From assembly GCA_030681525.1 (NCBI GenBank), contig JAUXSD010000190.1, forward strand, positions 1-32,767: DNA of 32,767 nt, given 5' to 3'. Source of the stretch: Solirubrobacteraceae bacterium (GTDB lineage: Bacteria; Actinomycetota; Thermoleophilia; Solirubrobacterales; Solirubrobacteraceae). The notes beneath the pieces are model-generated. The model did not search any database. It saw nothing but the letters and a program-made list of their open reading frames with translations, and was not told the DNA's origin. The translations under genes and the position numbers were made by a program. Below, piece after piece: positions 3 to 25,183 of this stretch. Position 1 is the first letter of the stretch. Every line of letters starts with the position of its first letter.

Positions 3-962
3 TCAGCGCGGCGCGCGCAGCCCGAACGGCGCCCGCACGCCGGGCACGCGCTTGGCCTGCACCACCCGCCGCCGCCGCCGCGCGGCCGGCAGCGCCCGCA
101 GCGCCGCCCCGTACGCGCGCAGCAGGTGGCGCTCGCGCAGCACGACGTGGCCCAGCGCCAGCACCTCGTAGAAGGCGATCCGGTGCAGGTCGCGGCGCAG
201 ATCGGGCCACGCGTCGTTCTTGACCATCATGAGCAGGCGGTTGCGAAACTGCAGCCGCCGGTGCGCCTCGGGCAGGCCCGAGCGGGTCGTCGGCGAGTAG
301 AAGCGCATGTGCCACGCCACCGCGCGCGGCTCGTACACGCAGCGCCAGCCCAGCAGCCGCGCGCGCCACGCGACGTCGACGTCGGAGGCCCACAGCTCGA
401 GGTCCTCGTCGAAGACCTCGCCGCCGATCGCGCACGCCTCGAGCACCTCGCGGCGATAGAGCACGCACGCGCCGTCGCCGCCGAACACCTCGGCCGCCTG
501 CCGGTAGCCCGTCGCGGGCTCGTCGTGGCCCACGAGGTTGTTCTTGCGGCGCCGGTCGATGACCATCCCGGCCGTGTCGAGCCGGTCGAGGCGGTCCGCG
601 GGCCGCATCCCGGTCGCGCGCACGAGCCGCGGCGCGACCGAGCCGATGCCGCGCCCCTCCAGCCGCGGCCGCGCGGCAGCGAGGAAGCCCTCGTCGAGCA
701 CGCAGTCGGCGTTGAGCAGCAGCACCGCGTCGCCCTCCGTCGCGACGATCCCGGCGTTGATCGCCGCCGCGTAGGACACGCGGGCGTGCAGCGTGACGAT
801 CCGTGCCCCGCAGCGCTCGGCGACCGACCGCGTCGCGTCGGTGCAGGCGTTGTCGATGACGACGAGCTCGGCGTCGGGCTGCGCCGCCGCCGCGGGCAGC
901 GAGTCCTCCAGCAGGTGCGCCTCGTCGACGCTGAGCACGAGGATCGTCGTGCGCCGGCTCAC
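3..962 (-). CDS. Glycosyltransferase family 2 (rhamnosyltransferase-like)
   Basis: A 319-residue GT-A fold glycosyltransferase, expected to transfer a sugar from a nucleotide donor on the cytoplasmic face during surface glycan assembly. Visible are the N-terminal strand TTILVLSVDEAHLLEDSL, the donor-site block VVIDNACTDAT, the metal-binding-like segment LLLNADCVLDEGF and the acceptor-side block LELWASDVDVAWRARLLGW typical of the WbbL/rhamnosyltransferase branch. The GTG start at 962 is chosen because it overlaps the TGA of the upstream glycosyltransferase (GTGA, 4 nt), so the pair is probably translationally coupled; longer in-frame starts lie inside that gene. The C-terminal ~45 residues are Arg-rich and probably membrane-associating. 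Sugar specificity cannot be read from the sequence. Confidence 0.88.
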   Translation of the reverse strand: MSRRTTILVLSVDEAHLLEDSLPAAAAQPDAELVVIDNACTDATRSVAERCGARIVTLHARVSYAAAINAGIVATEGDAVLLLNADCVLDEGFLAAARPRLEGRGIGSVAPRLVRATGMRPADRLDRLDTAGMVIDRRRKNNLVGHDEPATGYRQAAEVFGGDGACVLYRREVLEACAIGGEVFDEDLELWASDVDVAWRARLLGWRCVYEPRAVAWHMRFYSPTTRSGLPEAHRRLQFRNRLLMMVKNDAWPDLRRDLHRIAFYEVLALGHVVLRERHLLRAYGAALRALPAARRRRRVVQAKRVPGVRAPFGLRAPR

Positions 963-1975
963 AGCATCTCTTCGTACACGGCGACCGTGAGCGCGGCCGT
1001 CGCCGCCCATGACAGCCTCCGCGCCCGCCCGCGCCCGCGCTGCACGAGCTCGGCGTGACGCTCGCGGTCGCCGACCACCCGGCGGATCGCCGCCGCCATG
1101 TCGCCGACGTCCAGCGGGTCGAAGTACTCGGCCGCGTCGGCGCCCGTCTCGGGCAGCGCGGTCGCACGGGCCGCGACGACCGGCACGCCGCGCGCCATCG
1201 CCTCGACGAGCACGAGGCCGAAGCCCTCGTACAGCGACGGGTGCACGAGCGCGTCGGCGCCGCGCATGAGGGCATCAAGGCGTGCGTCGGACAAATAGCC
1301 GGTGAGGCGCACGGGCGCCCCGTCGGCCGCCGCGCGCACGCGGTCGGCCTCCGGGCCGCTGTCGATCCCGGCCAGCACGAGGCGGTGCGGCAGGCCCTCC
1401 TTGCGCAGCCGGGCGAACGCCTCCACCAGCCGCAGCAGGTTCTTCTTCGGCCGCAGGTCGCCCACCGCCAGCAGATAGGGACCGTCGTTGGGCACCGGCT
1501 CGACGCCGATCGGCAGCGACGGGGCGTTGGGGACGATCCGCACCCGCGCCTCGTCGACGTCGTAGCGGCGCACCACGTCGGCCGCCGTGTAGCCCGACAC
1601 GCAGATCACCCGCTGGGCCGATCGCGCCGCCCGGCGGGCGAACGTGCGGTACTTCCAGCCCGTCCGCCTGGAGAAGTCGTCGGGGAAGACCTCGAAGGCG
1701 AGGTCGTGGATCGTCACGACGCCCATGCAGGGCCGCGCGAGCGGCAGAAAGCAGTTCGGGGCGTGGACGAGATCGACCGCCTCGCGGCGCAGCAGCCGCG
1801 GCAGCTCGACCTGCTCGAAGAGGACCTCCGGGCCGCGCCCCTTGGCCTGCTCGATGATCCGGTACTCGATCCCCGGCCGGTCGGGCAGGGCGTCGATGAG
1901 CTCGCGCACGTAGCGCCCCCAGCCCCGCAGTTGCGGGGCGAAGGCATCACGGGCATCGATGGCGACGAGGGGCAC
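959..1975 (-). CDS. Glycosyltransferase family 1 (GT-B, GT4-like)
   Basis: A 338-residue GT-B glycosyltransferase. The N-terminal acceptor domain carries RGWGRYVRELIDALP, a typical GT4 entry loop. The C-terminal donor domain carries LLAVGDLRPKKNLLRLVEAF and the nucleotide-sugar motif HPSLYEGFGLVLVEAMARG with two spaced glutamates (EX7E type). I prefer the GTG at 1975 because the protein then begins directly with the first beta strand (VPLVAIDARD). An ATG at 2011 would add 12 residues and overlap the divergent methyltransferase start by 2 nt. It lies directly upstream of, and overlaps, the GT2 gene, so both probably act on the same glycan. No Shine-Dalgarno is visible; a CATCGT hexamer ends 7 nt before the GTG. 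Confidence 0.87.
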   Translation of the reverse strand: MPLVAIDARDAFAPQLRGWGRYVRELIDALPDRPGIEYRIIEQAKGRGPEVLFEQVELPRLLRREAVDLVHAPNCFLPLARPCMGVVTIHDLAFEVFPDDFSRRTGWKYRTFARRAARSAQRVICVSGYTAADVVRRYDVDEARVRIVPNAPSLPIGVEPVPNDGPYLLAVGDLRPKKNLLRLVEAFARLRKEGLPHRLVLAGIDSGPEADRVRAAADGAPVRLTGYLSDARLDALMRGADALVHPSLYEGFGLVLVEAMARGVPVVAARATALPETGADAAEYFDPLDVGDMAAAIRRVVGDRERHAELVQRGRGRARRLSWAATAALTVAVYEEML

Positions 1976-2697: not shown

Positions 2698-3495
2698 GTG
2701 CCCCAGGCCACGCAAGATCCCACCGACACCTCGCCGCCGACCCAGTCGAGGATCTTCGAGCTGCCGATCGAGCTCGGGCATCCCGACGAGCTGCTGCAGC
2801 GGATCGTCGGCTGGGTGGGCGGCGACGAGCCGACCAAGCGGGTCATGTACGTCAACGCCCACGTGCTCAACCAGTCGCGGGAGGACCCGGCGCTGCGCGA
2901 GGCGCTCGAGAACGCCGACCTCGTCTACTGCGACGGCTACGGCGTGCGGCTCGCCGCCAAGGCGCTCAGCGCCGAGATCCCGCACCGGATGACCGGCGCC
3001 GACTGGATCTGGGATCTGGCCGCCCTCTGCGAGCAGCAGGACCGCTCGGTCTACCTGCTGGGCTGCGATCCGGGCGTCGCCGCCCAGGCCGGCCAGCGGC
3101 TGCGCCGCGCGCACCCCGGGCTGCGCGTCGTCGGCACCCACCACGGCTACTTCCAGATCGGCTCGGGCCACGACGAGCGCGTCATCGAGGACATCAACGC
3201 GCGCGCCCCCGACATCCTGCTCGTCGGCATGGGAACGCCGAAGCAGGAGGTCTGGGCGCACCGCACGGTCGACCGCCTGAACTGCGATGTCCTGTGGAGC
3301 GTCGGGGCCCTGTTCGACTTCGTCTCGGGACGCGTACCGCGCGCGCCGGCCTCCTTGTCCGACAATGGGTTGGAATGGATCTTCAGACTGGCGATCGAGC
3401 CGAAGCGGATGTGGCGGCGCTATCTGGTGGGCAATCCGGTGTTCCTGCACCGGGTGATGGCGCAGGCCCGCCAGCGCCACGACGACCCCCGCTGA
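2698..3495 (+). CDS. WecG/TagA/CpsF family glycosyltransferase (GT26)
   Basis: A 265-residue member of the GT26 family, which adds N-acetylmannosamine-type or related sugars to a lipid-linked GlcNAc in enterobacterial common antigen, teichoic acid and exopolysaccharide synthesis. Diagnostic pieces are VNAHVLNQS (residues 52-60), the catalytic-region Asp in ADLVYCDGYGV (about residue 79), the glycine-rich VYLLGCDPGVA and GMGTPKQE (177-184), and the C-terminal amphipathic Arg/Trp-rich tail ([17 protein letters not shown]) that usually docks on the membrane. The GTG start at 2698 lies just after a -10-like hexamer; an upstream ATG at 2632 would overlap the methyltransferase. Family assignment is strong, donor and acceptor are unknown. 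Confidence 0.92.
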   Translation: MPQATQDPTDTSPPTQSRIFELPIELGHPDELLQRIVGWVGGDEPTKRVMYVNAHVLNQSREDPALREALENADLVYCDGYGVRLAAKALSAEIPHRMTGADWIWDLAALCEQQDRSVYLLGCDPGVAAQAGQRLRRAHPGLRVVGTHHGYFQIGSGHDERVIEDINARAPDILLVGMGTPKQEVWAHRTVDRLNCDVLWSVGALFDFVSGRVPRAPASLSDNGLEWIFRLAIEPKRMWRRYLVGNPVFLHRVMAQARQRHDDPR

Positions 3496-5429
3496 GCCCG
3501 CGCGTCCAGCTGGCGCTCGTCTGGCTGGGGCTGATCGGGGCCGCCTCGATCGCGCTCGGGCTGGCGACGTACGCCGGCGTGCAGGGCCGCGGCGGCGTCG
3601 CGGACGCCGGGCGCGTGGCGCTGGCCTGCGTCGCGCTGTTCGCGATCGTCGGCTTCGCGCCGACGCGCCTGTTCCTGCCGGCCGGGCTGCGCCGCCACGA
3701 GCTGCTGTGGGTCCTGCCGGTGGGGGCGATCGGCGCGGCGCTCGAGCTGGCCCTGCTCGTCTACGCCTTCGTCCCGTTCGACATCGCCCTGGCGATCGTC
3801 CTGGCCGGCGGCATCGGCGCCGGGATCTACGCCTGGCGGCGCGATCCCGGTCTGCCGCTCGCGCGGTCGGCGCGGCAGGCCGGCGTCCACGTCACGTGGG
3901 GCACGCTGCTCGTGCCGTTGTACCTCGCGGTCCTGATCGGCGCGATCGCGCTCGTCCCGATGTTCCGCGGCGGCTTCGTGACCGTCATCGGCAACGGCTC
4001 GGATGCGCACCTGGCCGTCGGCACCGCGGACTTCCTGCAGGACCACCACCCCAACGAGGCCGCGCCTGCCGAGGCGGTCGACCGCGTGCCGCTCGTGTGG
4101 CGCTCCAAGCCGCCGATCTACCTCGCGTTCGGCGCGGTCGCGCGCGTCGCCGGGATGGAGCCCTATGCGGTGATCGCCACGCTCGCGGCCGCGCTGCTGG
4201 CGCTCGGAGCGCTCGGCTTCTGGCTGCTCACGCGCGAGCTGCTCGGCGCCGGCGCCTGGGCGGCCGCCGCGGCGATGGGCCTCGTCGGCCTCAACCGGAT
4301 GACGCTCTTCACCGGCATGCACCCGTACTTCAACCAGACGTGGGGCTACATGGCGCTGCCCTTCGCGATCGTCCTGGCCTGGTACGTCGTGCGAAGACGC
4401 TCGCGCGGCGGCCTGCTGCTGTTCGCGTCGTTTCTCGGGGTGCTCGTGTTCGCCTACCCGCTGGCGATGCCGATCCCGCTCATCGCCGCGATCATCTTCT
4501 GGGCCTTCGAGCGCCGCCGCCAGGGCCGCTCGCTGCTGCGCCTGCCGCGGCTTCAGAACAAGCGCAACCTGCTGTGGATCGTGCCCCTCTTCGGGCTGCT
4601 GCTGCTGCCGCTGCAGGGCGTCCTGGAGAAGGTGTCGGTGTCGACGCGCGTGCTCGCCCCCGGCTACTCGCTCGTCAACTGGGGCGGTGACCTGACGGGG
4701 TTCTTCCCCGAGCGCTACTTCCTCGGCTTCGACGAGGCCGGCTTCGGGCTGGCCGGGATGATCCTGCTGATCGCCGGCCTGGTCATCGCGCTGCGCGCGG
4801 CGCCGCGCGACATCCGCTGGGGGCTGGGCGGGATCGTCGCCTTCGGCGTCCTCGCCGCGCTGTACTTCCGCCCCCGCGAGTACGGCTGGTACTTCCACTA
4901 CAAGGCGCTGGCGTTCGCGGCGCCGCTCGGCGTCGCGGTCGGCGCGGCGGGGCTCGCGCGGATCAGGTGGAAGTGGGTCGGCGTGGTGGCGCTGCTCTTC
5001 CTGATCGGCGCGACGCGCCTCGGCGCCGCGAAGGAGATCGGCCGCACGTTCGACCAGCTGCCCGTGAGCATGCTCGAGCTCGAGCGCGTCGACGAGTACC
5101 TGCCCGCCGACGCGTCGGTGCGGCTCGACATGCCGGCCGACGGGCGCCAGCTGTGGGCCGGGATCATCCTGGCCGGCCAGCCGCTGTGCTCGCAGCGGCC
5201 GGTGCTCGAGACGAGCTACCCCCACGTGCCGGTGTCGCGCAAGGCCGACTACGTGCTCGTCGACGACGACTGGCGCAAGCCGTTCGACGCCGTCGGGCCC
5301 CCGCTGCTGACGCTCGACCGCTACGTCCTGTACCGGATGGGCGCCGACGTGCCCGGCCCGGACCGCTGCTCGCGCAAGATGACGCTGACCGTGAAGAAGC
5401 TCTACGCCGGCGGCAAGGACGTCGAGTAG
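3411..5429 (+). CDS. Large polytopic membrane protein, possible GT-C glycosyltransferase
   Basis: About 672 residues, with some 11-13 hydrophobic segments over the first ~540 residues and a soluble C-terminal tail of ~130 residues starting near [11 protein letters not shown]. The first large extracytoplasmic loop holds [17 protein letters not shown] and [12 protein letters not shown], an arrangement that recalls GT-C (ArnT/PMT-like) enzymes using polyprenyl-phosphate sugars; this is inference, as no diagnostic motif is certain. The start is uncertain. GTG 3411 overlaps the WecG-like gene by 85 nt and ATG 3375 by more, while the first membrane segment begins only near 3504. A CTG at 3492 would give a 4-nt CTGA overlap with the WecG stop and fits the other junctions in this window. 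It is probably co-expressed with the WecG-like gene. Confidence 0.75.
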
Positions 5430-16070: not shown

Positions 16071-17105
16071 TCAGGCGGCGAGCGACTCGAGCACGTCGCG
16101 CAGCTTCTGCGCGGTCCGCTCGGGCGCGTAGGCGGCGACCCGGGCGGCGCCGCGCGCGCGCAGCTCGGCGCGCAGCTCGGAGTCGCCGACGGCCAGCGCC
16201 AGCGCCTCGGCGGCGACGCTCTCGTCGTCGGCGTCGGCGAGCAGCAGCGCCGCGTCGCCGGCCACCTCGGGCACCCCGCCGATCGCCCGCGCGATCACCG
16301 GCACGCCGAAGTGGAAGGCCTCCAGCAGCGGGATGCAGAACCCCTCGTGCTCGGACAGGCACAGAAACGCGTGGGCCGAGCGCCAGCGCTCGGCGAGCTG
16401 CTCGCGCGTCAGCCCCGACTCGATCGCGACCCGTCCGGGGGAGAGCTCCTCGGCGAGCGCCCGCATCGCGGCGTCGTACGGCCAGTTGATCGGCGCGCCG
16501 ACGAGCACGAGCCGCGCGTCGGGCGCGTGGCGGCGGCGGTAGAGCTCGAACGCGCGGATGACGGCGTCCTGGCGCTTGTGCGGGGCGAGGCGCCCGACGA
16601 AGAGGATCGTCGGCGGGGCGTCGGGCTCGGCCGCTGCCGGATCGCCGAGCTGCGACGGATCGAAGAGGATCGGGATGACGACGTCGGAGCCGAACTCGCG
16701 GGCGTTGTACAGCGACACGCCGGCGGCGACGTCGGCCGCGGCGGCGAACTGCGGCAGCTGCTTGCGGCCCAGCGCGCACACGACGCCGGCCTGCGGGTCG
16801 TGGTCCCAGAACCAGCGCGCGGGGGTGATGTTGTGCGAGATGAGCAGCGTGCGCTGGGGCATCTCGAGCACGCTGCGCAGCTTCGGCGCATAGGCCGAGT
16901 AGTGGACGAGCAGCACGTCGCCGTCGCGCGCCGCCAGCGAGCGCAGTGGGGCGATCCGGTCGCCGATGCGCGGATCGATCTCCGCCGCGACGTCGCTGCC
17001 GCCCCAGCCCCAGTCGCGGAAGCGGTCGCGGAAGGCCAGCGCCTGCGTCGTGACGGCGTCGTAGGGGCCTGCCCCGCTGAGGATCTGGTGGACGCGGAGC
17101 GTCAC
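16071..17105 (-). CDS. Glycosyltransferase family 1 (GT-B, GT4-like)
   Basis: A 344-residue GT-B enzyme, last gene of the minus-strand export operon. The donor domain shows ILFVGRLAPHKRQDAVIRAFEL and LSEHEGFCIPLLEAFHFGVPVIARAIGG, the EX7E-type nucleotide-sugar motif of GT4 enzymes. The N-terminus begins TLRVHQILSGAGPYDAVTTQA. GTG 17105 is chosen because it forms a GTGA overlap with the stop of the preceding small gene, and everything upstream in this frame is Arg/Pro-rich shadow sequence. Coupling to an ABC exporter suggests it adds a sugar to the exported polymer or its cap. Confidence 0.9.
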   Translation of the reverse strand: MTLRVHQILSGAGPYDAVTTQALAFRDRFRDWGWGGSDVAAEIDPRIGDRIAPLRSLAARDGDVLLVHYSAYAPKLRSVLEMPQRTLLISHNITPARWFWDHDPQAGVVCALGRKQLPQFAAAADVAAGVSLYNAREFGSDVVIPILFDPSQLGDPAAAEPDAPPTILFVGRLAPHKRQDAVIRAFELYRRRHAPDARLVLVGAPINWPYDAAMRALAEELSPGRVAIESGLTREQLAERWRSAHAFLCLSEHEGFCIPLLEAFHFGVPVIARAIGGVPEVAGDAALLLADADDESVAAEALALAVGDSELRAELRARGAARVAAYAPERTAQKLRDVLESLAA

Positions 17106-17458
17106 CGCGGCGCGGCCTCGTCGCGCTGCGCGGCGGCCTGCTCCTCGAGGCGCGCGACGCGATCCTCGATCTCGGCGACGCGGATGAGCAGGTTGAGGTT
17201 GAAGCGCGTCTGCTGGGACTGCAGCTCGCGCAGGTACTGGCGCAGGATGTGGACGAGCTGGCGCTTGGCCCACGTGATCGGCGCGCCGAGCTTGCGCGTC
17301 GAGCGCATGAGGTCGACGTCGGGCTCGATGTTCGCCCACTCCATGAGCTGCTCGATCGAGACGCGCTCGGTCGGCTCGATCGACATGCCGGGCGCCAGCG
17401 CGTCGTCGCGCTCGGCGGCCGCGGCGCGGGCGGCGGGCAGCGCCTCCTCGGGCTTCAT
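17102..17458 (-). CDS. Small coiled-coil protein coupled to an ABC exporter
   Basis: A 118-residue acidic/basic protein with no recognised domain. Residues ~1-30 are Ala/Glu-rich. The middle has VSIEQLMEWANIEPDVDLMRS and KLGAPITWAKRQLVHILRQYL. The C-terminus (LIRVAEIEDRVARLEEQAAAQ) has heptad spacing of a coiled coil. It overlaps the ATPase gene upstream (ATGA at 17455-17458) and the glycosyltransferase downstream (GTGA), so it is firmly part of this translational unit. Because the ATPase lacks the usual C-terminal module, this protein may replace it as an adaptor between exporter and glycosyltransferase; that is a guess. Confidence 0.75.
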   Translation of the reverse strand: MKPEEALPAARAAAAERDDALAPGMSIEPTERVSIEQLMEWANIEPDVDLMRSTRKLGAPITWAKRQLVHILRQYLRELQSQQTRFNLNLLIRVAEIEDRVARLEEQAAAQRDEAAPR

Positions 17459-18255
17459 GACGACTGCACCGGGTCGGCCGTGCCCATGAGCCGGTGGTAG
17501 AACGGCATGCCCTCGCCGACCGGCCCGTCGAAGATCTTCTCGCCGCCGTCGAGCACGATCACCCGCTCGCACGTGCGCTCGATGAGCGCGGGGTCGTGGG
17601 AGACGAGCACGAGCGTCGCGCCGCCGGCGATCTGCTCGGCGATGCGCGCCTCGCACTTGCGCTGGAAGGCCTCGTCGCCGACCGCGAGCACCTCGTCGAT
17701 GAGCAGCACGTCGGCGTCGAGGTGCGCGGCGATCGAGAAGCCCAGGCGCAGGAACATGCCCGACGAGTACGTCGCGACCGGGGCGTCGATGAAGTCGCCG
17801 AGCTCCGAGAAGGCGACGATCGCATCGAGGCGCTCCTCGATCTGCTCCTTGACCAGGCCGTGCAGCGCGCCGTTGAGGAAGATGTTCTCGCGTCCGGAGA
17901 AGTCGCGCCCGAAGCCCGCGCCGAGCTCGAGCTGGGCGACGACCTGGCCGCCGCAGGCGACGCGGCCGCGGTTCAGCGGGACGATCCCCGCCAGGACGCG
18001 CAGCGTCGAGGACTTGCCGGCGCCGTTGCGGCCGACCATGCCGACGGTCTCGCCCGGCTCGATGCGCAGCGAGACGTCGCGCAGCGCCTGCACCGGGGCC
18101 GGGCCGCCGGCCCGCGCGCGGCCGATCAGCATCTCCTTCAGCGTCCGGCCGCGGTCGGCCTTGACGCTGAACGCGCGCGAGGCGTGCTCGAGCACGATCT
18201 CGCCCGGCCGCACGCCGTCGTCGTAGACACCGCGCCCGCCTGCCCGCCGGCTCAC
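17455..18255 (-). CDS. Polysaccharide ABC transporter ATP-binding protein (Wzt-like, short form)
   Basis: A 266-residue ATPase for export of a polyprenyl-linked glycan. Walker A is GRNGAGKSS (75-83), the signature motif is YSSGMFLRLGFSIA (163 onward), Walker B is VLLIDE (183-188) with the typical LAVGDEAFQRKC following, and the H-loop is VLVSHD. The YSSGM signature and GDEAFQRKC are characteristic of the Wzt/TagH/RfbE branch. It ends soon after the nucleotide-binding domain, so the O-antigen-binding C-terminal domain of long Wzt proteins is absent. GTG 18255 overlaps the permease stop (GTGA), and its own stop overlaps the next gene. Confidence 0.92.
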   Translation of the reverse strand: MSRRAGGRGVYDDGVRPGEIVLEHASRAFSVKADRGRTLKEMLIGRARAGGPAPVQALRDVSLRIEPGETVGMVGRNGAGKSSTLRVLAGIVPLNRGRVACGGQVVAQLELGAGFGRDFSGRENIFLNGALHGLVKEQIEERLDAIVAFSELGDFIDAPVATYSSGMFLRLGFSIAAHLDADVLLIDEVLAVGDEAFQRKCEARIAEQIAGGATLVLVSHDPALIERTCERVIVLDGGEKIFDGPVGEGMPFYHRLMGTADPVQSS

Positions 18256-19016
18256 ACGACCACCGCCAGCTCGTCCTGCATGCGATCGAACAGCCACCTG
18301 CCGCCGAGCAGCATGAGCAGCGCGGCGCCCGCGACGTAGGCCAGCACGGCGAGATCCGGCACGACGCCGCCGTAGATGACGTCGCGGATCGCCGTGATGA
18401 ACGGCGCGATCGGGTTGCCCCACTCGAGCAGGTGGCGGTACGCGTCGCGGCGGGTGATCGACTCGATCTGAAAGAAGATCGGCGAGACGAAGAACCAGGG
18501 CAGCAGCGCCGCCGACAGGATCGGCGCGACGTCGCGGAAGTACGCGTGCAGGATGCTCACCGCCAGCGCGAAGCCCAGCGTGAAGGCGTACAGGCAGGCG
18601 AGGATCAGCGGCAGCAGCAGCAGCGCCACGTCGAGCGTCCCGCGGATGGCGATGGTCACGATGGTGACGAGCGCCAGGATCACGAGGAACGTCACGAGCT
18701 GCACGCTCACGACCGCGCCCGGGATCGCGGCGCGCGGAAAGCGCGCCTTGCGCACCAGCGCGCCCTGTTCGAGCAGCGACGGCGCGGCCGACAGCACCGA
18801 CTGGCTGAAGAAGATCCAGACGACGAGCCCGACCATGAGAAACAGCGGGTAGTCGGGGATGTCGTCGAGCTTGAAGATGAGGCCGAACATGAGGTAGTAG
18901 GCGCCCATCAGCACCAGCGGGTTGATGAGGTACCAGGCCACGCCGAGCGCCGAGCCCTTGTACTTCTGGCGCAGCTCGCGCCGCACGAGCTGCTCGAAGA
19001 GGTAGCGGTAGGCCAC
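18252..19016 (-). CDS. Polysaccharide ABC transporter permease (Wzm-like, ABC-2 family)
   Basis: A 254-residue inner-membrane permease. It starts with the amphipathic interface helix YLFEQLVRRELRQKYKGSALGVAWYLINPL, a hallmark of Wzm/TagG permeases. About six membrane segments follow, with the short loop VRKARFPRAAIP between segments 2 and 3 and the C-terminal NPIAPFITAIRD block before the last membrane pair. It partners the overlapping ATPase gene to translocate a lipid-linked glycan. The GTG start at 19016 lies 6 nt after a CATAAT hexamer, so this gene probably begins a transcript of its own covering 19016-16071. Confidence 0.93.
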   Translation of the reverse strand: MAYRYLFEQLVRRELRQKYKGSALGVAWYLINPLVLMGAYYLMFGLIFKLDDIPDYPLFLMVGLVVWIFFSQSVLSAAPSLLEQGALVRKARFPRAAIPGAVVSVQLVTFLVILALVTIVTIAIRGTLDVALLLLPLILACLYAFTLGFALAVSILHAYFRDVAPILSAALLPWFFVSPIFFQIESITRRDAYRHLLEWGNPIAPFITAIRDVIYGGVVPDLAVLAYVAGAALLMLLGGRWLFDRMQDELAVVV

Positions 19017-19028
19017 GCGCCGATTATG
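19017..19028 (-). promoter_or_regulatory. Putative leaderless promoter (-10 CATAAT) of the export operon
   Basis: On the minus strand CATAAT (19028-19023), 5 of 6 matches to TATAAT, is followed by 6 nt and then the GTG start at 19016. No Shine-Dalgarno is present. Confidence 0.55.
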
Positions 19029-19073
19029 GCCGTCGCGCGCGCGGCGCCGGGGGCCGGGCGCCCCGCGCCGCGG

Positions 19074-20681
19074 TCACGGACCCTTCGCGTTGAGCCGTTT
19101 GAAGACGCCGTAGCGCTCGTCGAGCGACGCGATGAGCCCCAGGGCGCTCGACAGCGACCGCGGAGGGTGCGCGACGAGCGAGTCGCGGGCGGCGAGCGCG
19201 CCGAAGTCGATCTGCACCGGGCCCTCGCGGCCCGGGAAGACGACCCCGGCGAGCTGCATGACGTTGATGATCTCCTGCGCCATGAGCCCGTACATGATCG
19301 TCGTCGGGTGGACCCCGTCGAGCGAGAACAGCCCGCCGGCGGTGCGCCCGCTCTCGTCGCTGGCGAAGAAGCGCGAGTCCGGCACCGGGCGCAGCTCGCG
19401 CAGGCCCCGCGGCAGCGGATACGCCGTCCACCAGCTCGGTCGCGACGACTCGTCGTTGATGTAGCGGCGCGAGGCCAGCCGGTCGAGCTGGCCGCAGAGG
19501 TCCAGCAGCAGCCAGTCGTGGCCGGCCAGGCGGGCGGCGTGGACGGCGTCCTCGATCGCGGCGTTGTAGAGATCGATCGCGGCGTCGATCGCGCGCGCCT
19601 CGGCGGCGGTGATGTGCTGGTGCACGCGCGGGTCGAAGCGCTCGTCGGTCACCCACGGGCGCGCGTAGAACGGGAAGTAGCGCGCGTCGCCGGAGACCTT
19701 GTCGCCGATGCCGCGCGCCAGCGGCGCGATCGTGACGTGCGGCACGGTGCACCAGACGACGTGGCGCGCCCGGATCGCACGGACCGCAGCTGCCGCGGCG
19801 GCGAGCTCCTCGCGAAAATGCGCGGGGTCCCAGACCGTCCACGTACCGCGCGCCTCGGGAGCGTCGTAGGAGCTGCTCGCCGACCAGCAGACGCGCAGCT
19901 GCGTCACCGCGCCGAGCACGTTGTTGGCGCCGAGCATGACGACGAGCGTCTCGATGCCGTCGCCCTCGCCCGGCGTCTGCACGGTCCCGTCCGCGCCCAG
20001 CGCGGCCGCGGTGGCGATCGGGCTGAGCTCCTGCTGGCCCTCCGGCCCCGGCGCCAGGACGCGCAGCGCCGCGCGCTCGTTGGCGTTCTGCACGACCTGC
20101 TTGAGCAGCGCGTCGGTCGGCGCCGCGATGTCCGTGCGGCACATCTGCGCGGTGCGCACGTTGGCGTCGTAGAAGTCCCAGCCGTAGATCCCGAGGTTGT
20201 GGTTGCGCGTGCCGAAGCGGCCCGGCTCCTGGGCATCGCGCTCCCACCAGTCCTCGATCTCGTCCATGAGGTCGTGGATCTTCATCGCGGCGAACGCCAG
20301 CTCCAGCCCGCTGATGCGATCGCCGAACCGGCTCTCCAGCTCGCGCAGGAAGTACTCGATGTTCAGCGGCAGCCCGCCGAAGCGGTCGTAGCTCGGATGC
20401 TGGAAGCGGTCGTACATGCCCAGCTCGCGCGCGACGAGCGCCGGATAGGCCAGGTGGGTGTTGTGGATCGCGCCGCTCTGGAAGCCGTGCGTCAGCGAGT
20501 CGCCGACCGTCACCAGCCGGTGCGTGGGCAGCTCCGCGGGCCGCCCGTCGACGGCGCGCGGGCGGCGAGGATCGAGCTCGACGCCGAGCTGCGGGTCCAA
20601 GCGCGGGACGCGCGCATCCTGCGGTGACTGCGCGGCGAGGACCTCGGGTGGCACCGCCTTGATGCACTCTGCCGTCGCCAT
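19074..20681 (-). CDS. SGNH/GDSL-family hydrolase, large form
   Basis: A 535-residue protein with the three visible SGNH blocks: block I VGDSLTHGFQSG with nucleophile Ser62, block III LGANNVLG with N253/N254, and block V SLDGVHPT with Asp455 and His458. Families with this set are esterases or lipases that remove acyl groups from glycans or lipids. At 535 residues it is much longer than typical 200-250 residue members, mainly from insertions between blocks I and III and between III and V. I see no signal peptide, so it is predicted cytoplasmic unless exported otherwise. It lies between the GH10 gene (79 nt upstream) and the exporter (57 nt downstream). GAGGGG before ATG 20681 is a fair Shine-Dalgarno. 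Confidence 0.85.
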   Translation of the reverse strand: MATAECIKAVPPEVLAAQSPQDARVPRLDPQLGVELDPRRPRAVDGRPAELPTHRLVTVGDSLTHGFQSGAIHNTHLAYPALVARELGMYDRFQHPSYDRFGGLPLNIEYFLRELESRFGDRISGLELAFAAMKIHDLMDEIEDWWERDAQEPGRFGTRNHNLGIYGWDFYDANVRTAQMCRTDIAAPTDALLKQVVQNANERAALRVLAPGPEGQQELSPIATAAALGADGTVQTPGEGDGIETLVVMLGANNVLGAVTQLRVCWSASSSYDAPEARGTWTVWDPAHFREELAAAAAAVRAIRARHVVWCTVPHVTIAPLARGIGDKVSGDARYFPFYARPWVTDERFDPRVHQHITAAEARAIDAAIDLYNAAIEDAVHAARLAGHDWLLLDLCGQLDRLASRRYINDESSRPSWWTAYPLPRGLRELRPVPDSRFFASDESGRTAGGLFSLDGVHPTTIMYGLMAQEIINVMQLAGVVFPGREGPVQIDFGALAARDSLVAHPPRSLSSALGLIASLDERYGVFKRLNAKGP

Positions 20682-20707
20682 GTTGCGTCCCCTCGCTCGC
20701 GGTCTTG

Positions 20708-20727
20708 CCGCAGGCCGCCGGCTGCGG
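20708..20727. other. Small dyad in the leader of the SGNH gene
   Basis: CCGCAG (20708-20713) and CTGCGG (20722-20727) form a 6-bp stem with an 8-nt GC loop in the 79-nt gap between the GH10 stop and the SGNH start. It may be an attenuating or terminating hairpin; evidence is weak. Confidence 0.25.
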
Positions 20728-20760
20728 TTCGGCCTAGCCTCGCAGAGACGCGCGGCGCTG

Positions 20761-21807
20761 TCAGCCGCCGAGCGCGCGCTGCACGGCGCCGAAGGCCGGC
20801 TTGGGCGCGAGCTTGTCGGTGAGCAGCGTCGCGGCGCCCATCCCGGGCTGCGTCTCGGAGATCCACGAGCGGCTGTCGGTGAAGCCCCAGAACGTCAGCG
20901 ACCGGCACGTCACCGTCAGGCAGCCGCGGACGATCTGCTCGTAGATCTGCGCCTGGTGGTCGAGCTTCTGCCCGTCCGGCGGCAGCGGGACGCCGACGTC
21001 GGCCTCGGTGATCGCGATGTCGAGTCCGAGCGCCGCGAAGCGCTGCAGGTTGGCCACGTGGTCGTCCGGCAGCCCGTCGAGGTTGGCGTGGAACTGAAAG
21101 CCGACGCCGTCGATCGGCACGCCGTCGCGCTTGAGCCGGCTGACGATCTCGTAGAGCCGGTCGGACTTCGCGTTGATCCCCTCGGCGCCGATCTCGTTGA
21201 GGTAGAGCTTGGCGTCGGGGTCGGCCCGGTGCGCGAGGCGGAAGGCCAGCGCGATGAAGTCCTCGCCGAGGCGGCGGGCGAAGACCGACGGGCGCAGCCC
21301 GCCGCGGTCGGAGACCGGCTCGTTGACGACGTCCCAGACGCCGACGTCGCCCTTGAAGTGGCCGACGACCTCGGCGATGTGCGTGCGCATCGCCGCCTCG
21401 AGCTCGCGCGGGCCGAGCTCGCGCACCCAGCCGGGCAGCTGGAAGTGCCAGACCAGCGTGTGGCCGCGGATCTTCTGTTTCGCCTCCCGGGCGCGGTCGA
21501 CGATGTCGTCGGCCGGGCCGAACTCGAACTCGCCGCGCTCCGGCTCGATCTGCTCCCACTTCATCTCGTTCTCCGGCGTCACCGTCGAGAACTGCGCCGC
21601 GATCGTCTGGCGGTAGGCGCGGTTGCGCTTGGCGTGGTCGCCGCGCACCGCGGTGCCGATCTCCAGCCCCTTCGCCTTGGCCAGCGTGCGCAGCGGCTGG
21701 CCCGGCAGCGGCTCGGCGTCGGCGCCCCCACGCAGGACCCAGATCGCGCAGAGAACGGCGATGACGACGACGACGCCGAGCGCCACCCGGCGCGGAAATC
21801 CGCCCAA
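20761..21807 (-). CDS. Membrane-anchored glycoside hydrolase family 10 (endo-beta-1,4-xylanase)
   Basis: A 348-residue GH10 enzyme. A basic N-terminus and one hydrophobic helix (about residues 8-25) act as signal anchor. The TIM barrel carries FSTVTPENEMKWEQIEP, HTLVWHFQLPGW, the acid/base Glu163 in WDVVNEP and the nucleophile Glu268 in ITEADV, so all catalytic residues of GH10 are present. GH10 members hydrolyse beta-1,4-xylan and related chains. The start is uncertain: TTG 21807 (1 nt after the upstream stop) keeps the positive n-region, while GTG 21786 removes it. Lying inside a surface-polysaccharide locus with a UDP-xylose synthase, it may trim the cell's own polymer rather than plant xylan. 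Confidence 0.9.
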   Translation of the reverse strand: MGGFPRRVALGVVVVIAVLCAIWVLRGGADAEPLPGQPLRTLAKAKGLEIGTAVRGDHAKRNRAYRQTIAAQFSTVTPENEMKWEQIEPERGEFEFGPADDIVDRAREAKQKIRGHTLVWHFQLPGWVRELGPRELEAAMRTHIAEVVGHFKGDVGVWDVVNEPVSDRGGLRPSVFARRLGEDFIALAFRLAHRADPDAKLYLNEIGAEGINAKSDRLYEIVSRLKRDGVPIDGVGFQFHANLDGLPDDHVANLQRFAALGLDIAITEADVGVPLPPDGQKLDHQAQIYEQIVRGCLTVTCRSLTFWGFTDSRSWISETQPGMGAATLLTDKLAPKPAFGAVQRALGG

Positions 21808-21808
21808 C

Positions 21809-23335
21809 TCAGAAGGCGCCGCGGCGCGTCAGCACGGCGGGGACGGTCTTGAGGAGGATGCTGAGGTCCAGGAAGACCGACCAGCGCTCGAGGTAGAGGA
21901 AGTCCAGCCGCACGAGGTCGTCGAAGTCCAGCTCCGAGCGCCCGGAGACCTGCCACAGCCCGGTGATGCCCGGCGTGACGAGGTAGCGCTTCTTGTGCCA
22001 TTCCTCGAGGCGCTGGAAGTCGCGCTCGGGCAGCGGCCGCGGGCCGACGAGCGACATCTGCCCGCGCACGACGTTGAACAGCTGCGGCAGCTCGTCGAGC
22101 GAGTAGCGCCGCAGGAAGCGCCCGACCGGGGTCATGCGCGGGTCGTCGCGCATTTTGAACAGCGCGCCCGTCGCCTCGTTGAGCGACTCGAGGTCGGCCT
22201 GGCGCTGGTCGGCGTCGCGGTACATCGTGCGGAACTTCAGGCAGGCGAACGGCGCCCCGCCGATGCCCGGCCGCATCGAGCGGTAGATGACCGGGCCGCG
22301 CGAGCTGAGCCGGACGGCCAGCGCGCCGAGCGCCAGCACCGGGCTGAGCAGCACGATGAGAACCAGCGAGCCGGCGAGGTCGAACGTGCGCTTGACGAAG
22401 AAGTCGAAGCCCTCGAACACCGGCGGCTTGAGCTCGAACAGCGGCACGGCCTCGCCCGGCACGAACTCGGCGCGGTGCACGAGCAGCTCCATCGTCGACG
22501 GCGCGATCCGCACGCGCACCCCGGCCCCGTGGGCGACGTCGACGAGCTCGACGGCCTGCGGCTGCGGGAAGTCCGGGTCGGCGATGATGACCTCGTCGAT
22601 GCGGTGGCGGTGGATCACCTGCGCCAGCTCGCTGAGCGTGCCGAGCGACAGCAGCCCGTTGTCGGGGCGCGGCGTCAGCGAGATGAAGCCGACGACGTTG
22701 ACCGTCGGGTGCGCGGCGTCGCGCAACGCGTGGCCGACGGCCTCGATGTGCTGGCCGCTGCCGACGAGCACCGCGCGGCGCTGGTAGCCGGCGGCGCGCA
22801 GCAGCGCGCCGGTCGACTTCTCGTAGCCCAGGCGCAGCAGCGAGACGTACACGACCGCGAAGAACAGCGAGCCGTAGAAGATGTAGTAGGACGTGAACTC
22901 GTGGCCGCTGGCGACCGCGTAGACGAGCGCCACCAGCGCCACCTGCGCCAGCGAGGAGGCGATGCGCGACAGGCCGGGCCGCTCGCCGCGCGCCGAGTAC
23001 AGCCCGGACCGCGCGAACAGCAGCACGGTCAGCAGGCAGGCGAAGTCGAAGAGCTCGTCGGTCGCGGCCGCCTGCGCGCGCAGCTGCCAGACGCCGGTCA
23101 GCAGCCCGGCCTTCAGCCACAGCGCCGTCAGGATCGCCATGTAGATCCCGATCGCGTCGAGCATGAACAGCGCGCCGACGCGCAGCAGGCTGCGCAGCGT
23201 GTCCAGGCGCAGCAGGAACGAGAGGACCGGCGGGCGCTTGCGGCGCACGTCGCGCTCGGACAGCGCGAACTCCGGCGTCGGCGTCGCCACCGTCGCCTTG
23301 GGCACGCCCTCCCGTGGCTGCTGCGTTGTCGGCAT
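21809..23335 (-). CDS. Polyprenyl-phosphate sugar-1-phosphate transferase (WbaP/ExoY type)
   Basis: A 508-residue initiating enzyme that moves a sugar 1-phosphate from a UDP-sugar to undecaprenyl phosphate. The N-terminal half has about four membrane helices followed by a cytoplasmic Rossmann-like CoA-binding domain (RRAVLVGSGQHIEAVGHALRD). The C-terminal catalytic domain begins with a membrane helix after VKRTFDLAGS and shows SRGPVIYRSMRPG, ACLKFRTMYRDAD, LRRYSLDELPQL, GQMSLVGPRPLP and ITGLWQVSGRSELDFDDLVRLD. This is the full-length architecture of bacterial priming glycosyltransferases. The ATG 23335 is preceded at 6 nt by TTAGAG. It is followed 1 nt later by the GH10 gene. Confidence 0.95.
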   Translation of the reverse strand: MPTTQQPREGVPKATVATPTPEFALSERDVRRKRPPVLSFLLRLDTLRSLLRVGALFMLDAIGIYMAILTALWLKAGLLTGVWQLRAQAAATDELFDFACLLTVLLFARSGLYSARGERPGLSRIASSLAQVALVALVYAVASGHEFTSYYIFYGSLFFAVVYVSLLRLGYEKSTGALLRAAGYQRRAVLVGSGQHIEAVGHALRDAAHPTVNVVGFISLTPRPDNGLLSLGTLSELAQVIHRHRIDEVIIADPDFPQPQAVELVDVAHGAGVRVRIAPSTMELLVHRAEFVPGEAVPLFELKPPVFEGFDFFVKRTFDLAGSLVLIVLLSPVLALGALAVRLSSRGPVIYRSMRPGIGGAPFACLKFRTMYRDADQRQADLESLNEATGALFKMRDDPRMTPVGRFLRRYSLDELPQLFNVVRGQMSLVGPRPLPERDFQRLEEWHKKRYLVTPGITGLWQVSGRSELDFDDLVRLDFLYLERWSVFLDLSILLKTVPAVLTRRGAF

Positions 23336-23428
23336 CCCCTGCTCTAACGCCTCACGATGGCAGATGTTCCGTCACCGCGCCAGCGGTGGACGGAGAACCT
23401 TTTTGGCCTGCTGTGTCCAGGGTTCCGA

Positions 23429-24379
23429 TCAGGCACCGCCGCGTCCGACGAGCGCCGCGGCGCCCGACGCCTCGAGGGTTCGTGCGAGGCCGTCGTGCAG
23501 CTCGATCTCGGGCTCCCAGTGCAGCAGCTCGCGCGCCAGCGTGATGTCCGGCTGGCGCACCTGCGGATCGTCGGTGGGCAGCGCCTCGTAGACGATCTCC
23601 GAGCTCGAGCCGGTCACGTCGATGACCTGTTGGGCCAGCTCCAGCAGCGTGAACTCGTTCGGGTTGCCGACGTTGATCGGCCCCTGCTCGCCGGATTCCG
23701 CGAGCGCGATCATGCCGCGGATGAGGTCGTCGACGTAGCAGAACGAGCGCGTCTGACTGCCGTCGCCGAACACGGTGATCGGCCGGTTCTGCAGCGCCTG
23801 GCGCAGGAACGTCGGGATCGCGCGGCCGTCGTACGGCCTCATTCGACTCCCGTAGGTGTTGAAGATGCGGATGATCGACGTGTCGACGCCCTGCTGGCGG
23901 TGGTAGGCCATCGTCAGCGCCTCGGCGTAGCGCTTGGCCTCGTCGTAGACGCCGCGCGGGCCGATCGGGTTGACGTGGCCCCAGTACGTCTCCTTCTGCG
24001 GATGGACCTGCGGGTCGCCGTAGACCTCGCTCGTCGAGGCCAGCAGGAAGCGTGCGCGGTGCTTCTTGGCGAGGCCCAGCGTGTGGTGCGTGCCGTGCGA
24101 GCCGACCTTCAGCGTGTGCAGCGGCAGGCGCAGGTAGTCGATCGGCGAGGCCGGCGACGCGAGGTGGTAGACGACGTCCACCGGCCGCTGCACGAAGTAC
24201 GGCTGCACGATGTCGCACTGCAGAAACTCGAACTCCGGCACCCGGATGTGCTCGATATTGCGCAGCGAGCCGGTCTCGAGGTTGTCGACGCAGACGACGT
24301 GGTGGCCGCGGCGCAGCAGCTCGTCGCACAGATGCGAGCCCAGAAACCCCGCGCCACCGGTGACAAGGCAGGTGGCCAT
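23429..24379 (-). CDS. UDP-glucuronate decarboxylase (UDP-xylose synthase)
   Basis: A 316-residue NAD-dependent extended SDR enzyme. GGAGFLG (8-14) binds NAD, D32 begins the adenosine-ribose contact, [16 protein letters not shown] (115-130) and YDEAKR (145-150, Y145/K149) hold the catalytic residues. [30 protein letters not shown] and [19 protein letters not shown] are the classic UDP-xylose synthase blocks, separating it from epimerases and dTDP-glucose dehydratases. It converts UDP-glucuronate to UDP-xylose. It is the first gene of the minus-strand polysaccharide run. A TAGAGT hexamer ends 8 nt before ATG 24379. Confidence 0.9.
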
Positions 24380-24649: not shown

Positions 24650-25183
24650 ATGCCCGCCCAACCTTTTGTCGAGCTTCTCAACGAGCAGATCGGCCACGAG
24701 TTCGCCGCGTCGCAGCAGTACCTCGCGATCGCCTCCTACTACGACGACGAGACGCTACCGCGACTGGCCGCGTTCTTCTACGCCCAGGCGCTCGAAGAGC
24801 GCAATCACGCGCTGATGATGGTCCAGTACCTCCTCGACGCGGACGCGCCGGCCCCGATCCCCGGCGTCGCCGCGCCGCAGAACGGCTTCGGCGACGTCGT
24901 CGAGCCGATCGCCCTGGCGCTCGAGCAGGAGAAGCGCGTGACCCAGCAGATCAACGCGCTGGCCGCGACCGCCCGGCAGGAGGGCGACTACTCCAGCGAG
25001 CAGTTCATGCAGTGGTTCATCAAGGAGCAGATCGAGGAGGTCGCCTCGATGAACGACCTGCTCAAGGTCGTCCAGCGCGCCCGCGAGAACCCGCTGCTGG
25101 CCGAGGAGTACCTCGCCCGCGAGGCGCCCGGCGAGGAGGGCCCGGATCCGACGGCGCCGCCCGTCGCCGGCGGCCCCCTGTAG
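24650..25183 (+). CDS. Ferritin (non-haem, FtnA/BfrB type)
   Basis: A 177-residue iron-storage ferritin that oxidises Fe(II) and stores it in a 24-subunit shell. Ferroxidase ligands appear at E17 (helix A, IGHEFAASQQY), E50 and H53 (ALEERNHALMM), E94 (ALEQEKRV) and Q127/E130 (IKEQIEEV), the arrangement of bacterial non-haem ferritins. No haem-binding Met as in bacterioferritin was identified. The Gly/Pro-rich C-terminal 15 residues extend past the last helix. It is divergent from the small Cys-rich gene. Iron-dependent control would be expected, but no iron box is evident in the short spacer. Confidence 0.93.
   Translation: MPAQPFVELLNEQIGHEFAASQQYLAIASYYDDETLPRLAAFFYAQALEERNHALMMVQYLLDADAPAPIPGVAAPQNGFGDVVEPIALALEQEKRVTQQINALAATARQEGDYSSEQFMQWFIKEQIEEVASMNDLLKVVQRARENPLLAEEYLAREAPGEEGPDPTAPPVAGGPL

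What the first reader, a model, noticed from the sequence alone, without database searches (positions are those of the whole stretch)
16071..24379. Candidate system: a surface polysaccharide locus that both makes UDP-xylose and encodes a xylanase
Eight consecutive minus-strand genes encode a UDP-xylose synthase, a priming sugar-phosphate transferase, a membrane-anchored GH10 endo-xylanase with intact catalytic glutamates, a large SGNH hydrolase, Wzm/Wzt-like export components, a coiled-coil protein and a GT4 glycosyltransferase. GH10 genes normally sit in plant-xylan degradation loci. Here the xylanase begins 1 nt after the priming transferase gene and shares a locus with the UDP-xylose source. 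The simplest reading is an endogenous xylose-containing (xylan-like) exopolysaccharide, trimmed by GH10 and perhaps acyl-modified through the SGNH enzyme. Gene content is seen; the polymer is inference.
Basis: partly seen in the sequence, partly recalled or inferred. Interest (0 to 1): 0.72.

Follow-up and report, generated by a model that had tools for sequence, protein, structure and literature searches.

The report
Xylanase inside a surface-sugar export locus
A soil actinobacterium and its relatives keep a xylanase-family enzyme inside the gene cluster that builds and exports a cell-surface sugar polymer, most likely to trim the cell's own polymer rather than to eat plants; a similar arrangement in another bacterium goes with a polymer that has no xylose, so a bacterial xylan is possible but unproven.

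Summary
GH10 is no stray insertion. In 146 family genomes, 17 of the 18 best GH10 matches lie beside the priming transferase or Wzm, 14 of them 4-165 nt from the transferase on the same strand, in five genera. These 17 occur in 17 of 34 genomes with a strong Wzm match and 0 of 112 others. All 17 have an N-terminal hydrophobic stretch or lipobox, so export is likely and anchoring probable. The genome has no GH43 match and no xylose isomerase above cut-off. A dedicated processing enzyme for an exported surface glycan is the best reading. UDP-xylose synthase sits beside the transferase with or without GH10. SGNH was in no other locus fetched. A published Sphingomonas exopolysaccharide cluster contains a GH10 gene, yet its polymer is Glc/Gal/GlcA and that gene is dispensable (PMC11340318). 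A xylan-like polymer is possible, not shown. I rate this a new variant of a known kind: hydrolases within polysaccharide-making operons.

The parts
23429..24379 (-). UDP-glucuronate decarboxylase / UDP-xylose synthase (UXS), 316 aa
   Evidence: phmmer against PDB: human UXS1 8e-106, first match of another name 4e-42; 129 of 146 family genomes have a match at E<=1e-90
21809..23335 (-). priming polyprenyl-phosphate glycosylphosphotransferase (Bac_transf), 508 aa
   Evidence: PF02397 4e-64; TIGR03025 above cut-off, WbaP and WcaJ models below cut-off, so its sugar is undetermined
20761..21807 (-). GH10 glycoside hydrolase, 348 aa, no other Pfam domain
   Evidence: PF00331 1e-95; best PDB 3wuf 2e-83; catalytic residues invariant in A1; beside the transferase or Wzm in 17 of 18 best family matches
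21733..21786 (-). hydrophobic N-terminal stretch of GH10 (residues 8-25 from the TTG start), predicted anchor or export signal
   Evidence: 18 uncharged residues followed by Arg, H=3.13, 51 residues before TPEN; an A-D-A follows, so cleavage is not excluded
21319..21321 (-). GH10 acid/base Glu163
   Evidence: invariant column in A1; role recalled
21004..21006 (-). GH10 nucleophile Glu268
   Evidence: invariant column in A1; role recalled
19074..20681 (-). SGNH-type hydrolase, 535 aa; seen only in this genome's locus
   Evidence: PF13472 below cut-off; motifs GDS/GANN/DGVH; no match in the other loci held
18252..19016 (-). Wzm-like ABC-2 permease
   Evidence: PF01061 6e-18; only NCBIfam match is galactan exporter permease NF050109, below cut-off
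17455..18255 (-). Wzt-like ABC ATPase
   Evidence: PF00005 1e-15; best NCBIfam match is galactan exporter ATPase NF050108, below cut-off; start
17102..17458 (-). small conserved protein with C-terminal coiled-coil-like part (by eye), 118 aa, unknown function
   Evidence: no family match; same place between Wzt and GT4 in the 13 loci chosen for alignment
16071..17105 (-). GT4-family glycosyltransferase
   Evidence: PF00534 1.5e-29; start
3579..5429 (+). 616-aa membrane protein, GT-C-like fold; recurs near the locus in relatives
   Evidence: AlphaFold2 pTM 0.79; eight of the nine Foldseek matches at E<=1e-3 are GT-C enzymes (class recalled), led by AftA, TM 0.29-0.41; orthologues
2698..3495 (+). 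WecG/TagA/CpsF-family glycosyltransferase, recurs near the locus in relatives
   Evidence: PF03808 3e-59; TIGR00696 above cut-off
959..1975 (-). second GT4-family glycosyltransferase
   Evidence: PF00534 1e-30
3..962 (-). GT2-family glycosyltransferase at the window edge
   Evidence: PF00535/PF13641; recurs beside the locus

Best explanation
The locus builds a surface polysaccharide on a polyprenyl lipid and exports the chain through Wzm/Wzt. The GH10 protein is its dedicated processing hydrolase. It is exported and probably held on the outer face of the cell membrane by a helix or a lipid, with the catalytic domain close to the membrane, and cuts newly exported chains to set their length or release them. 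Xylose made from UDP-glucuronate by UXS is probably one component of the glycan. Shown: gene content, conserved order, co-occurrence of GH10 with the Wzm gene, intact catalytic residues. Predicted: export and anchoring. Inferred: the substrate, the direction of export and the trimming role.
For: Of 146 family genomes, 18 GH10 matches reach E<=1e-76. Of these 18, 14 lie 4-165 nt from the priming transferase on the same strand, 2 lie 1.6 and 2.0 kb away on the same strand, 1 lies 20 nt from Wzm with the transferase on another contig, 1 is unlinked. The 17 linked ones (five genera) occur in 17 of 34 genomes with a strong Wzm match and 0 of 112 others (Fisher p 3.5e-13, not corrected for kinship). 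In genus g9 the two genomes with Wzm have the linked GH10 and the five without Wzm lack it (two of the five are under 70% complete). On a tree of 59 GH10 proteins the 17 can form one clade (p-AU 0.39), and the unlinked one (G028) falls among unlinked GH10s with 99/98 support. None of the 20 other family GH10 matches is within 45 kb of a listed transferase match (one search's list is cut at its weak end). Each of the 17 has an N-terminal hydrophobic stretch (14) or a lipobox-like motif (3), 41-57 residues before TPEN; in 10 of the 14 an Arg follows the stretch directly, against 2 of 15 unlinked ones measured, where Pro is usual (12 of 15). No GH43 match, no xylose isomerase above cut-off; two nucleotide-sugar dehydrogenase genes above the TIGR03026 cut-off could supply UDP-GlcA.
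Against: No biochemical data. The substrate-binding residues look like those of ordinary plant-xylan GH10s, which does not separate own from foreign xylan. GH10 at the locus is optional: 17 of 34 strong-Wzm genomes lack it. In Sphingomonas the GH10 of an EPS cluster is dispensable (PMC11340318). Unlinked family GH10s also associate with Wzm, more weakly (11 of 20 genomes, p 9e-4), so shared ancestry explains part of the co-occurrence. Anchoring is not firm: hydrophobic runs overlap with those of the other GH10s (median 18 residues in the 18 best matches, 16 in unlinked, 14.5 in outgroup), and an A-x-A-like site follows in several, the window's included, so a cleaved, secreted enzyme is not excluded. 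In G021 GH10 stays with Wzm but UXS and the transferase are elsewhere.
Confidence: 0.7

Rival explanations
1. The GH10 is an ordinary xylanase that attacks plant xylan; its place in the polysaccharide locus is accidental or reflects co-regulation on plant litter.
For: The closest solved relatives are named endo-xylanases, and the xylan-binding positions checked are kept. The genome holds a second GH10. A cleavable export signal is not excluded.
Against: Linkage to the transferase or Wzm in 17 of 18 best matches across five genera; no GH43 match and no xylose isomerase above cut-off. The second GH10 also sits outside any xylan locus I can see, beside genes that look like riboflavin synthesis (by eye). 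None of the GH10 loci from other taxa that I checked (13 contigs from other phyla with flanks up to 10 kb; 27 loci from other actinobacterial genomes with flanks of at most about 1.5 kb, some of them weak partial GH10 matches) shows a transferase, Wzm or UXS homologue.
Confidence: 0.16
2. The polymer is truly xylan-like (beta-1,4-linked xylose stretches) and GH10 edits it: the reader's reading. This is a special case of the best explanation, not an alternative to it.
For: UXS in the locus; GH10 subsite residues typical of xylanases (roles recalled); nucleotide-sugar dehydrogenase genes present.
Against: UXS is family-wide (129 of 146) and next to the transferase with or without GH10. No xylosyltransferase is identified: GT4 enzymes are retaining, so an inverting enzyme would be needed for beta linkages (recalled). 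The GH10-containing Sphingomonas cluster makes a Glc/Gal/GlcA polymer (PMC11340318).
Confidence: 0.22
3. GH10 works as a transglycosylase that moves the exported chain from its lipid carrier to a wall or glycan acceptor, or re-joins chains.
For: GH10 is a retaining family with known transglycosylation (recalled); catalytic domain close to the predicted anchor; a GT-C-like enzyme and the closest exporter models recall the mycobacterial arabinogalactan pathway.
Against: No sequence feature separates it from hydrolases; a tethering role would predict that GH10 is not optional, yet 17 of 34 strong-Wzm genomes lack it.
Confidence: 0.08

Closest known systems
Promonan cluster of Sphingomonas sp. LM7 with GH10 gene prmN and GH16 gene prmQ (PMC11340318; passages, outline with abstract, sections 7, 8 and 12 read)
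   Same: A GH10 gene inside a polysaccharide-making cluster with a priming sugar-phosphate transferase and a WecG/TagA-type transferase.
   Different: Wzx/Wzy pathway in an alphaproteobacterium, not Wzm/Wzt; polymer is Glc/Gal/GlcA, no xylose listed; prmN deletion had no visible effect; a text search for UDP-xylose found nothing. PrmN was not compared by sequence.
Hydrolases of exopolysaccharide operons: BcsZ, PslG, PgaB, PssZ, AlgL (PMC5933820; passages read)
   Same: A carbohydrate-cleaving enzyme encoded with the synthesis and export genes, thought to affect length, export or degradation of excess polymer.
   Different: Other enzyme families and polymers; activity is shown there, not here.
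Mycobacterial galactan exporter Wzm/Wzt (NCBIfam NF050108/NF050109) with GT-C arabinosyltransferases such as AftA
   Same: Best NCBIfam matches for this Wzm and Wzt; the GT-C-like 616-aa protein matches AftA first among PDB folds.
   Different: Scores far below the equivalog cut-offs (157 of 400 and 58 of 380 bits); arabinogalactan genes were not looked for; I know of no GH10 there (recalled).
Xylan-utilisation loci with GH10 endo-xylanases
   Same: The enzyme family and its active-site residues.
   Different: No GH43 match and no xylose isomerase above cut-off in the genome; neighbours are synthesis and export genes.

Membership tests
GH10 (PF00331) | profile match above curated cut-off | tested here: met
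   320.9 bits against 22.1
GH10 (PF00331) | two catalytic glutamates and conserved -1/-2 subsite residues (residue roles recalled) | tested here: met
   E79, N80, K83, H116, N162, E163, H240, E268, W307, W315 invariant, W120 and Q238 nearly so, in the 18 sequences aligned
GH10 (PF00331) | endo-beta-1,4-xylanase activity | not testable with these tools
   needs assay
UDP-xylose synthase | much closer to UXS enzymes than to other SDR sugar enzymes | tested here: met
   human UXS1 8e-106, first match of another name 4e-42
UDP-xylose synthase | UDP-GlcA decarboxylase activity | not testable with these tools
   needs assay
ABC-transporter-dependent polysaccharide export (Wzm/Wzt) | adjacent ABC-2 permease and ATPase with glycosyltransferase genes | tested here: met
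Galactan exporter equivalogs NF050108/NF050109 | score above equivalog cut-off | tested here: not met
   157 of 400 and 58 of 380 bits; not filed as a galactan exporter
Polysaccharide-operon glycoside hydrolase (BcsZ/PslG kind) | encoded with the synthesis and export genes, conserved across genomes | tested here: met
Polysaccharide-operon glycoside hydrolase (BcsZ/PslG kind) | located outside the cytoplasmic membrane | tested here: inconclusive
   N-terminal hydrophobic stretch or lipobox-like motif in 17 of 17 by hydropathy and motif only; no topology program; anchor and cleaved signal not separated
Polysaccharide-operon glycoside hydrolase (BcsZ/PslG kind) | cuts the polymer made by its own locus | not testable with these tools
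   polymer unknown
Xylan-utilisation locus | companion xylan/xylose catabolic genes | tested here: not met
   no GH43 match, no TIGR02630 match, one TIGR02631 match at 50 bits against 447 in the genome; none among the window genes scanned; other catabolic families were not searched

The most novel reading that the evidence does not exclude
The Solirubrobacteraceae locus makes a bacterial surface polymer with beta-1,4-xylose stretches, a true bacterial xylan, and trims it with its own membrane-bound GH10, so that part of the GH10 diversity counted as plant-biomass enzymes in soil metagenomes is in fact for cell-surface maintenance.
Probability: 0.2. Interest if true: 0.75.

Novelty: new variant of a known kind. 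Interest (0 to 1): 0.48.

Why it matters
GH10 genes are routinely read as signs of plant-biomass breakdown (recalled). A conserved GH10 group tied to a Wzm/Wzt export locus in soil-type actinobacteria would mean that some such calls are wrong, and gives a clear two-way test (own glycan against plant xylan). It also extends the trend of hydrolases in polysaccharide operons to an exporter type and a phylum for which the papers seen here show no case.

Tried and rejected
Strain-specific insertion of GH10: rejected by conservation in five genera. SGNH as part of the conserved system: rejected, matched only this genome's locus among 156 loci held; I had no genome search left to look for it in whole genomes. 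UXS as a GH10-specific partner: rejected, family-wide. Two independent recruitments of GH10 into the slot: suggested by both trees, but one clade is not rejected (p-AU 0.39). Other hydrolases taking the slot in GH10-less genomes: none recognised; occupants look unrelated or the slot is empty (of the occupants only some were scanned against Pfam). A second, weakly recognised hydrolase lies upstream of UXS in two genomes of genus g8.

Literature: ten searches accepted. brought the Sphingomonas precedent. The other listings showed no GH10 in a Wzm/Wzt locus in their titles or abstract openings; one search listed 15 of 25 and one search listed 20 of 161 papers. Seen beyond listings: PMC5933820, PMC6193724 and PMC8205485 (passages; the last had no bearing) and PMC11340318 (passages, outline with abstract, sections 7, 8, 12). 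No claim is made about papers outside this library.
Full report
What is there. The window lies in a 4.56 Mb, 352-contig assembly (completeness 95, contamination 5.4). The nearest named relatives found with the GH10 protein are MAGs titled Solirubrobacteraceae bacterium, so the host is a Solirubrobacteraceae-like actinobacterium; the genome itself is unnamed. The GH10 protein is a single-domain enzyme with both catalytic glutamates. Its start codon is uncertain (TTG at 21807 or GTG at 21786), so the exact 1-nt gap is uncertain too. Wzm, Wzt, the 118-aa protein and GT4 overlap by 4 nt each, which suggests one transcript; a consensus scan found no sigma-70-like promoter, which in a genome of this type says little.

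Is GH10 part of the locus? I searched 146 genomes of the same family with four proteins of the locus. UXS matched in 129 of 146 (E<=1e-90), the priming transferase in 134 of 146 (E<=1e-60), Wzm in 36 of 146 (E<=1e-30; 34 of them E<=1e-79) and GH10 in 30 of 146 (E<=1e-20). The 18 GH10 matches with E<=1e-76 were checked against transferase and Wzm positions. Fourteen lie 4-165 nt from the transferase on the same strand. Two (G009, G063) lie 1.6 and 2.0 kb away on the same strand. One (G021) lies 20 nt from Wzm, with UXS and the transferase on another contig beside other genes, so there the locus is split and GH10 stays with Wzm. One (G028) is unlinked. The linked 17 come from five genera (g1, g4, g8, g9, g16). 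The other 20 family GH10 matches are on another contig than the listed transferase matches, in genomes without a listed one, or at least 45 kb away; the list is cut at its weak end, so a distant transferase paralogue could be missed. The 17 occur in 17 of 34 strong-Wzm genomes and in 0 of 112 others (Fisher p 3.5e-13, kinship ignored). Within genus g9 the two Wzm genomes have it and the five without Wzm do not; g8 splits 7 to 1 and g1 6 to 1 in the same sense. Four of these seven negatives are incomplete assemblies (65-87%); the other three are at least 95% complete. The unlinked family GH10s also lean towards Wzm genomes, less strongly (11 of 20 genomes, p 9e-4; G028 was put in this set after the tree was seen).

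Reading the neighbourhoods shows a recurring order: UXS, priming transferase, [GH10], [variable gene or none], Wzm, Wzt, 118-aa protein, GT4, with inversion of the Wzm-GT4 block in G034. In many loci a WecG-type transferase, GT2, GT4 or the 616-aa membrane protein lie close by. In all 35 genomes where both lie on the stretch read (36 loci; L035 and L116 are the same sequence), UXS is directly upstream of the transferase; 20 of those 35 stretches have no GH10 (in G021 it lies beside Wzm on another contig). The match tables show exceptions to the UXS-transferase pair elsewhere: about 23 kb apart in G008, and 2.5-2.8 kb apart in G026 and G094. So UXS and the transferase are the old core, and GH10 comes with the Wzm/Wzt version. 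The gene between GH10 and Wzm differs from genome to genome (SGNH here, a 234-aa membrane-type protein by eye in G006, a ceramidase-like protein in G147 and its homologue in G152, nothing in G001, G004, G005, G009, G014 and G021). The SGNH gene matched nothing else in the 156 loci held.

Controls. No transferase, Wzm or UXS homologue was found beside GH10 in the 13 loci from other phyla (flanks up to 10 kb), in the 13 further loci of the class search (L094-L106, unlinked family, order and class GH10s, flanks at most about 1.5 kb), or in 27 of 29 loci of the phylum search (L128-L156, same flanks; the two exceptions are the family members G014 and G005). Some of those 27 are weak partial GH10 matches, and with short flanks a more distant link would be missed. 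In a class-wide search of 399 genomes every GH10 match better than 1e-70 was in the same family.

Tree. I built trees of 61 and then 59 GH10 proteins (18 best family matches, 22 other family, order and class ones, 21 outgroup ones; a choice, not every match; two very long outgroup rows were dropped from the second). The 14 linked genes of g1, g4 and g8 form one supported clade, and the 3 of g9 and g16 another; in both trees outgroup rows stand between them, but holding all 17 together is not rejected (p-AU 0.39). G028, the unlinked one, groups with unlinked GH10s at 99/98.

Location. All 17 linked GH10s start with a hydrophobic stretch (14) or a lipobox-like motif (G009, G021, G063), and the catalytic domain follows closely: the stretch ends 41-57 residues before TPEN. 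I checked this against the other GH10s. Run lengths overlap: median 18 in the 18 best matches, 16 in 15 unlinked ones, 14.5 in 14 outgroup ones; rows without the motif or a run were left out. What differs more is the next residue: Arg directly after the stretch in 10 of the 14, against 2 of 15 unlinked ones, where Pro is usual (12 of 15). Arg after a long run fits a retained anchor, Pro and A-x-A fit a cleaved signal (recalled). But several linked ones, the window's included (A-D-A), also have an A-x-A-like site, so secretion after cleavage is not excluded. Export is likely; anchoring is probable, not shown.

What does it cut? The GH10 positions that I recall as contacting xylose at subsites -1 and -2 are kept, so beta-1,4-xylose or a close mimic is the natural guess. 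UXS is a convincing UDP-xylose synthase by similarity, and two nucleotide-sugar dehydrogenase genes are above the TIGR03026 cut-off. Against a xylan: UXS does not track GH10; no inverting xylosyltransferase is identified; and the Sphingomonas LM7 promonan cluster has a GH10 gene (prmN) while its polymer is Glc, Gal and GlcA and the gene is dispensable (PMC11340318, sections 7, 8 and 12 and passages). I did not compare PrmN with this protein by sequence.

Not a food locus. The genome has no GH43 match, no TIGR02630 xylose isomerase, and only a weak TIGR02631 match (50 bits against 447). Other xylose pathways and other xylan enzymes were not searched genome-wide. The second GH10 of the genome stands beside genes that look like riboflavin synthesis (by eye) and membrane proteins with PMT-type matches, with homologous neighbours in two congeners.

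Wider machinery. The 616-aa protein has no Pfam or NCBIfam match. Its AlphaFold2 model (pTM 0.79) has nine Foldseek hits at E<=1e-3: eight are GT-C enzymes (AftA, DPY19, PglB, AftD; class recalled), the ninth is a chain of a translocon complex, probably its oligosaccharyltransferase. TM-scores are 0.29-0.41, so the fold class is likely and the family is not assigned. With the Wzm/Wzt models closest to the galactan exporter (below cut-off), the system may work like mycobacterial wall-glycan assembly; membership is not claimed.

Verdict. Observation confirmed. Because hydrolases in such operons are an established trend (PMC5933820, passages) and a GH10 example is in print, I rate it a new variant of a known kind.

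Noticed in passing
L054:12505-14901 (genome G013): The UXS gene carries an intein (PF14890 splicing domain above cut-off, LAGLIDADG match below cut-off); split UXS matches with long open frames in G068 and G126 suggest more.
   Followed up: partly
L088:2199-3323 and L118:13471-14589 (genus g8): A second hydrolase-like protein (PF11790 below cut-off in L088; no NCBIfam match) lies directly upstream of UXS, and a ceramidase-like protein (PF04734 in L088, homologue in L118) between GH10 and Wzm.
   Followed up: partly
L062:9201-10442 (own genome, contig C130): Second GH10, outside the locus, beside genes that look like riboflavin synthesis (by eye) and PMT-like membrane proteins, with homologous neighbours in G005 and G006.
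   Followed up: partly
window 24650-25183: A ferritin-like gene sits divergently upstream of UXS in many family loci read, an unexplained conserved neighbour.
   Followed up: no
window 17102-17458: A 118-aa charged protein with a conserved core (RSTR.LGAPIT in most) between Wzt and GT4 in the 13 loci aligned; no family match. Possible length or assembly factor.
   Followed up: partly
L120:3755-4702 (genome G150): UXS gene interrupted by a stop codon (one search reports one TAG; one search calls two pieces); may be an assembly error.
   Followed up: no
window 30998-32767: Large Gly/Asp-rich repeat protein with a Pro-rich, LPFTG-like C-terminal end, running off the window edge.
   Followed up: no
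window 8982-11381: GH65-family enzyme also present downstream of the locus in three congeners (L051, L052; L122); role in the glycan unknown.
   Followed up: no
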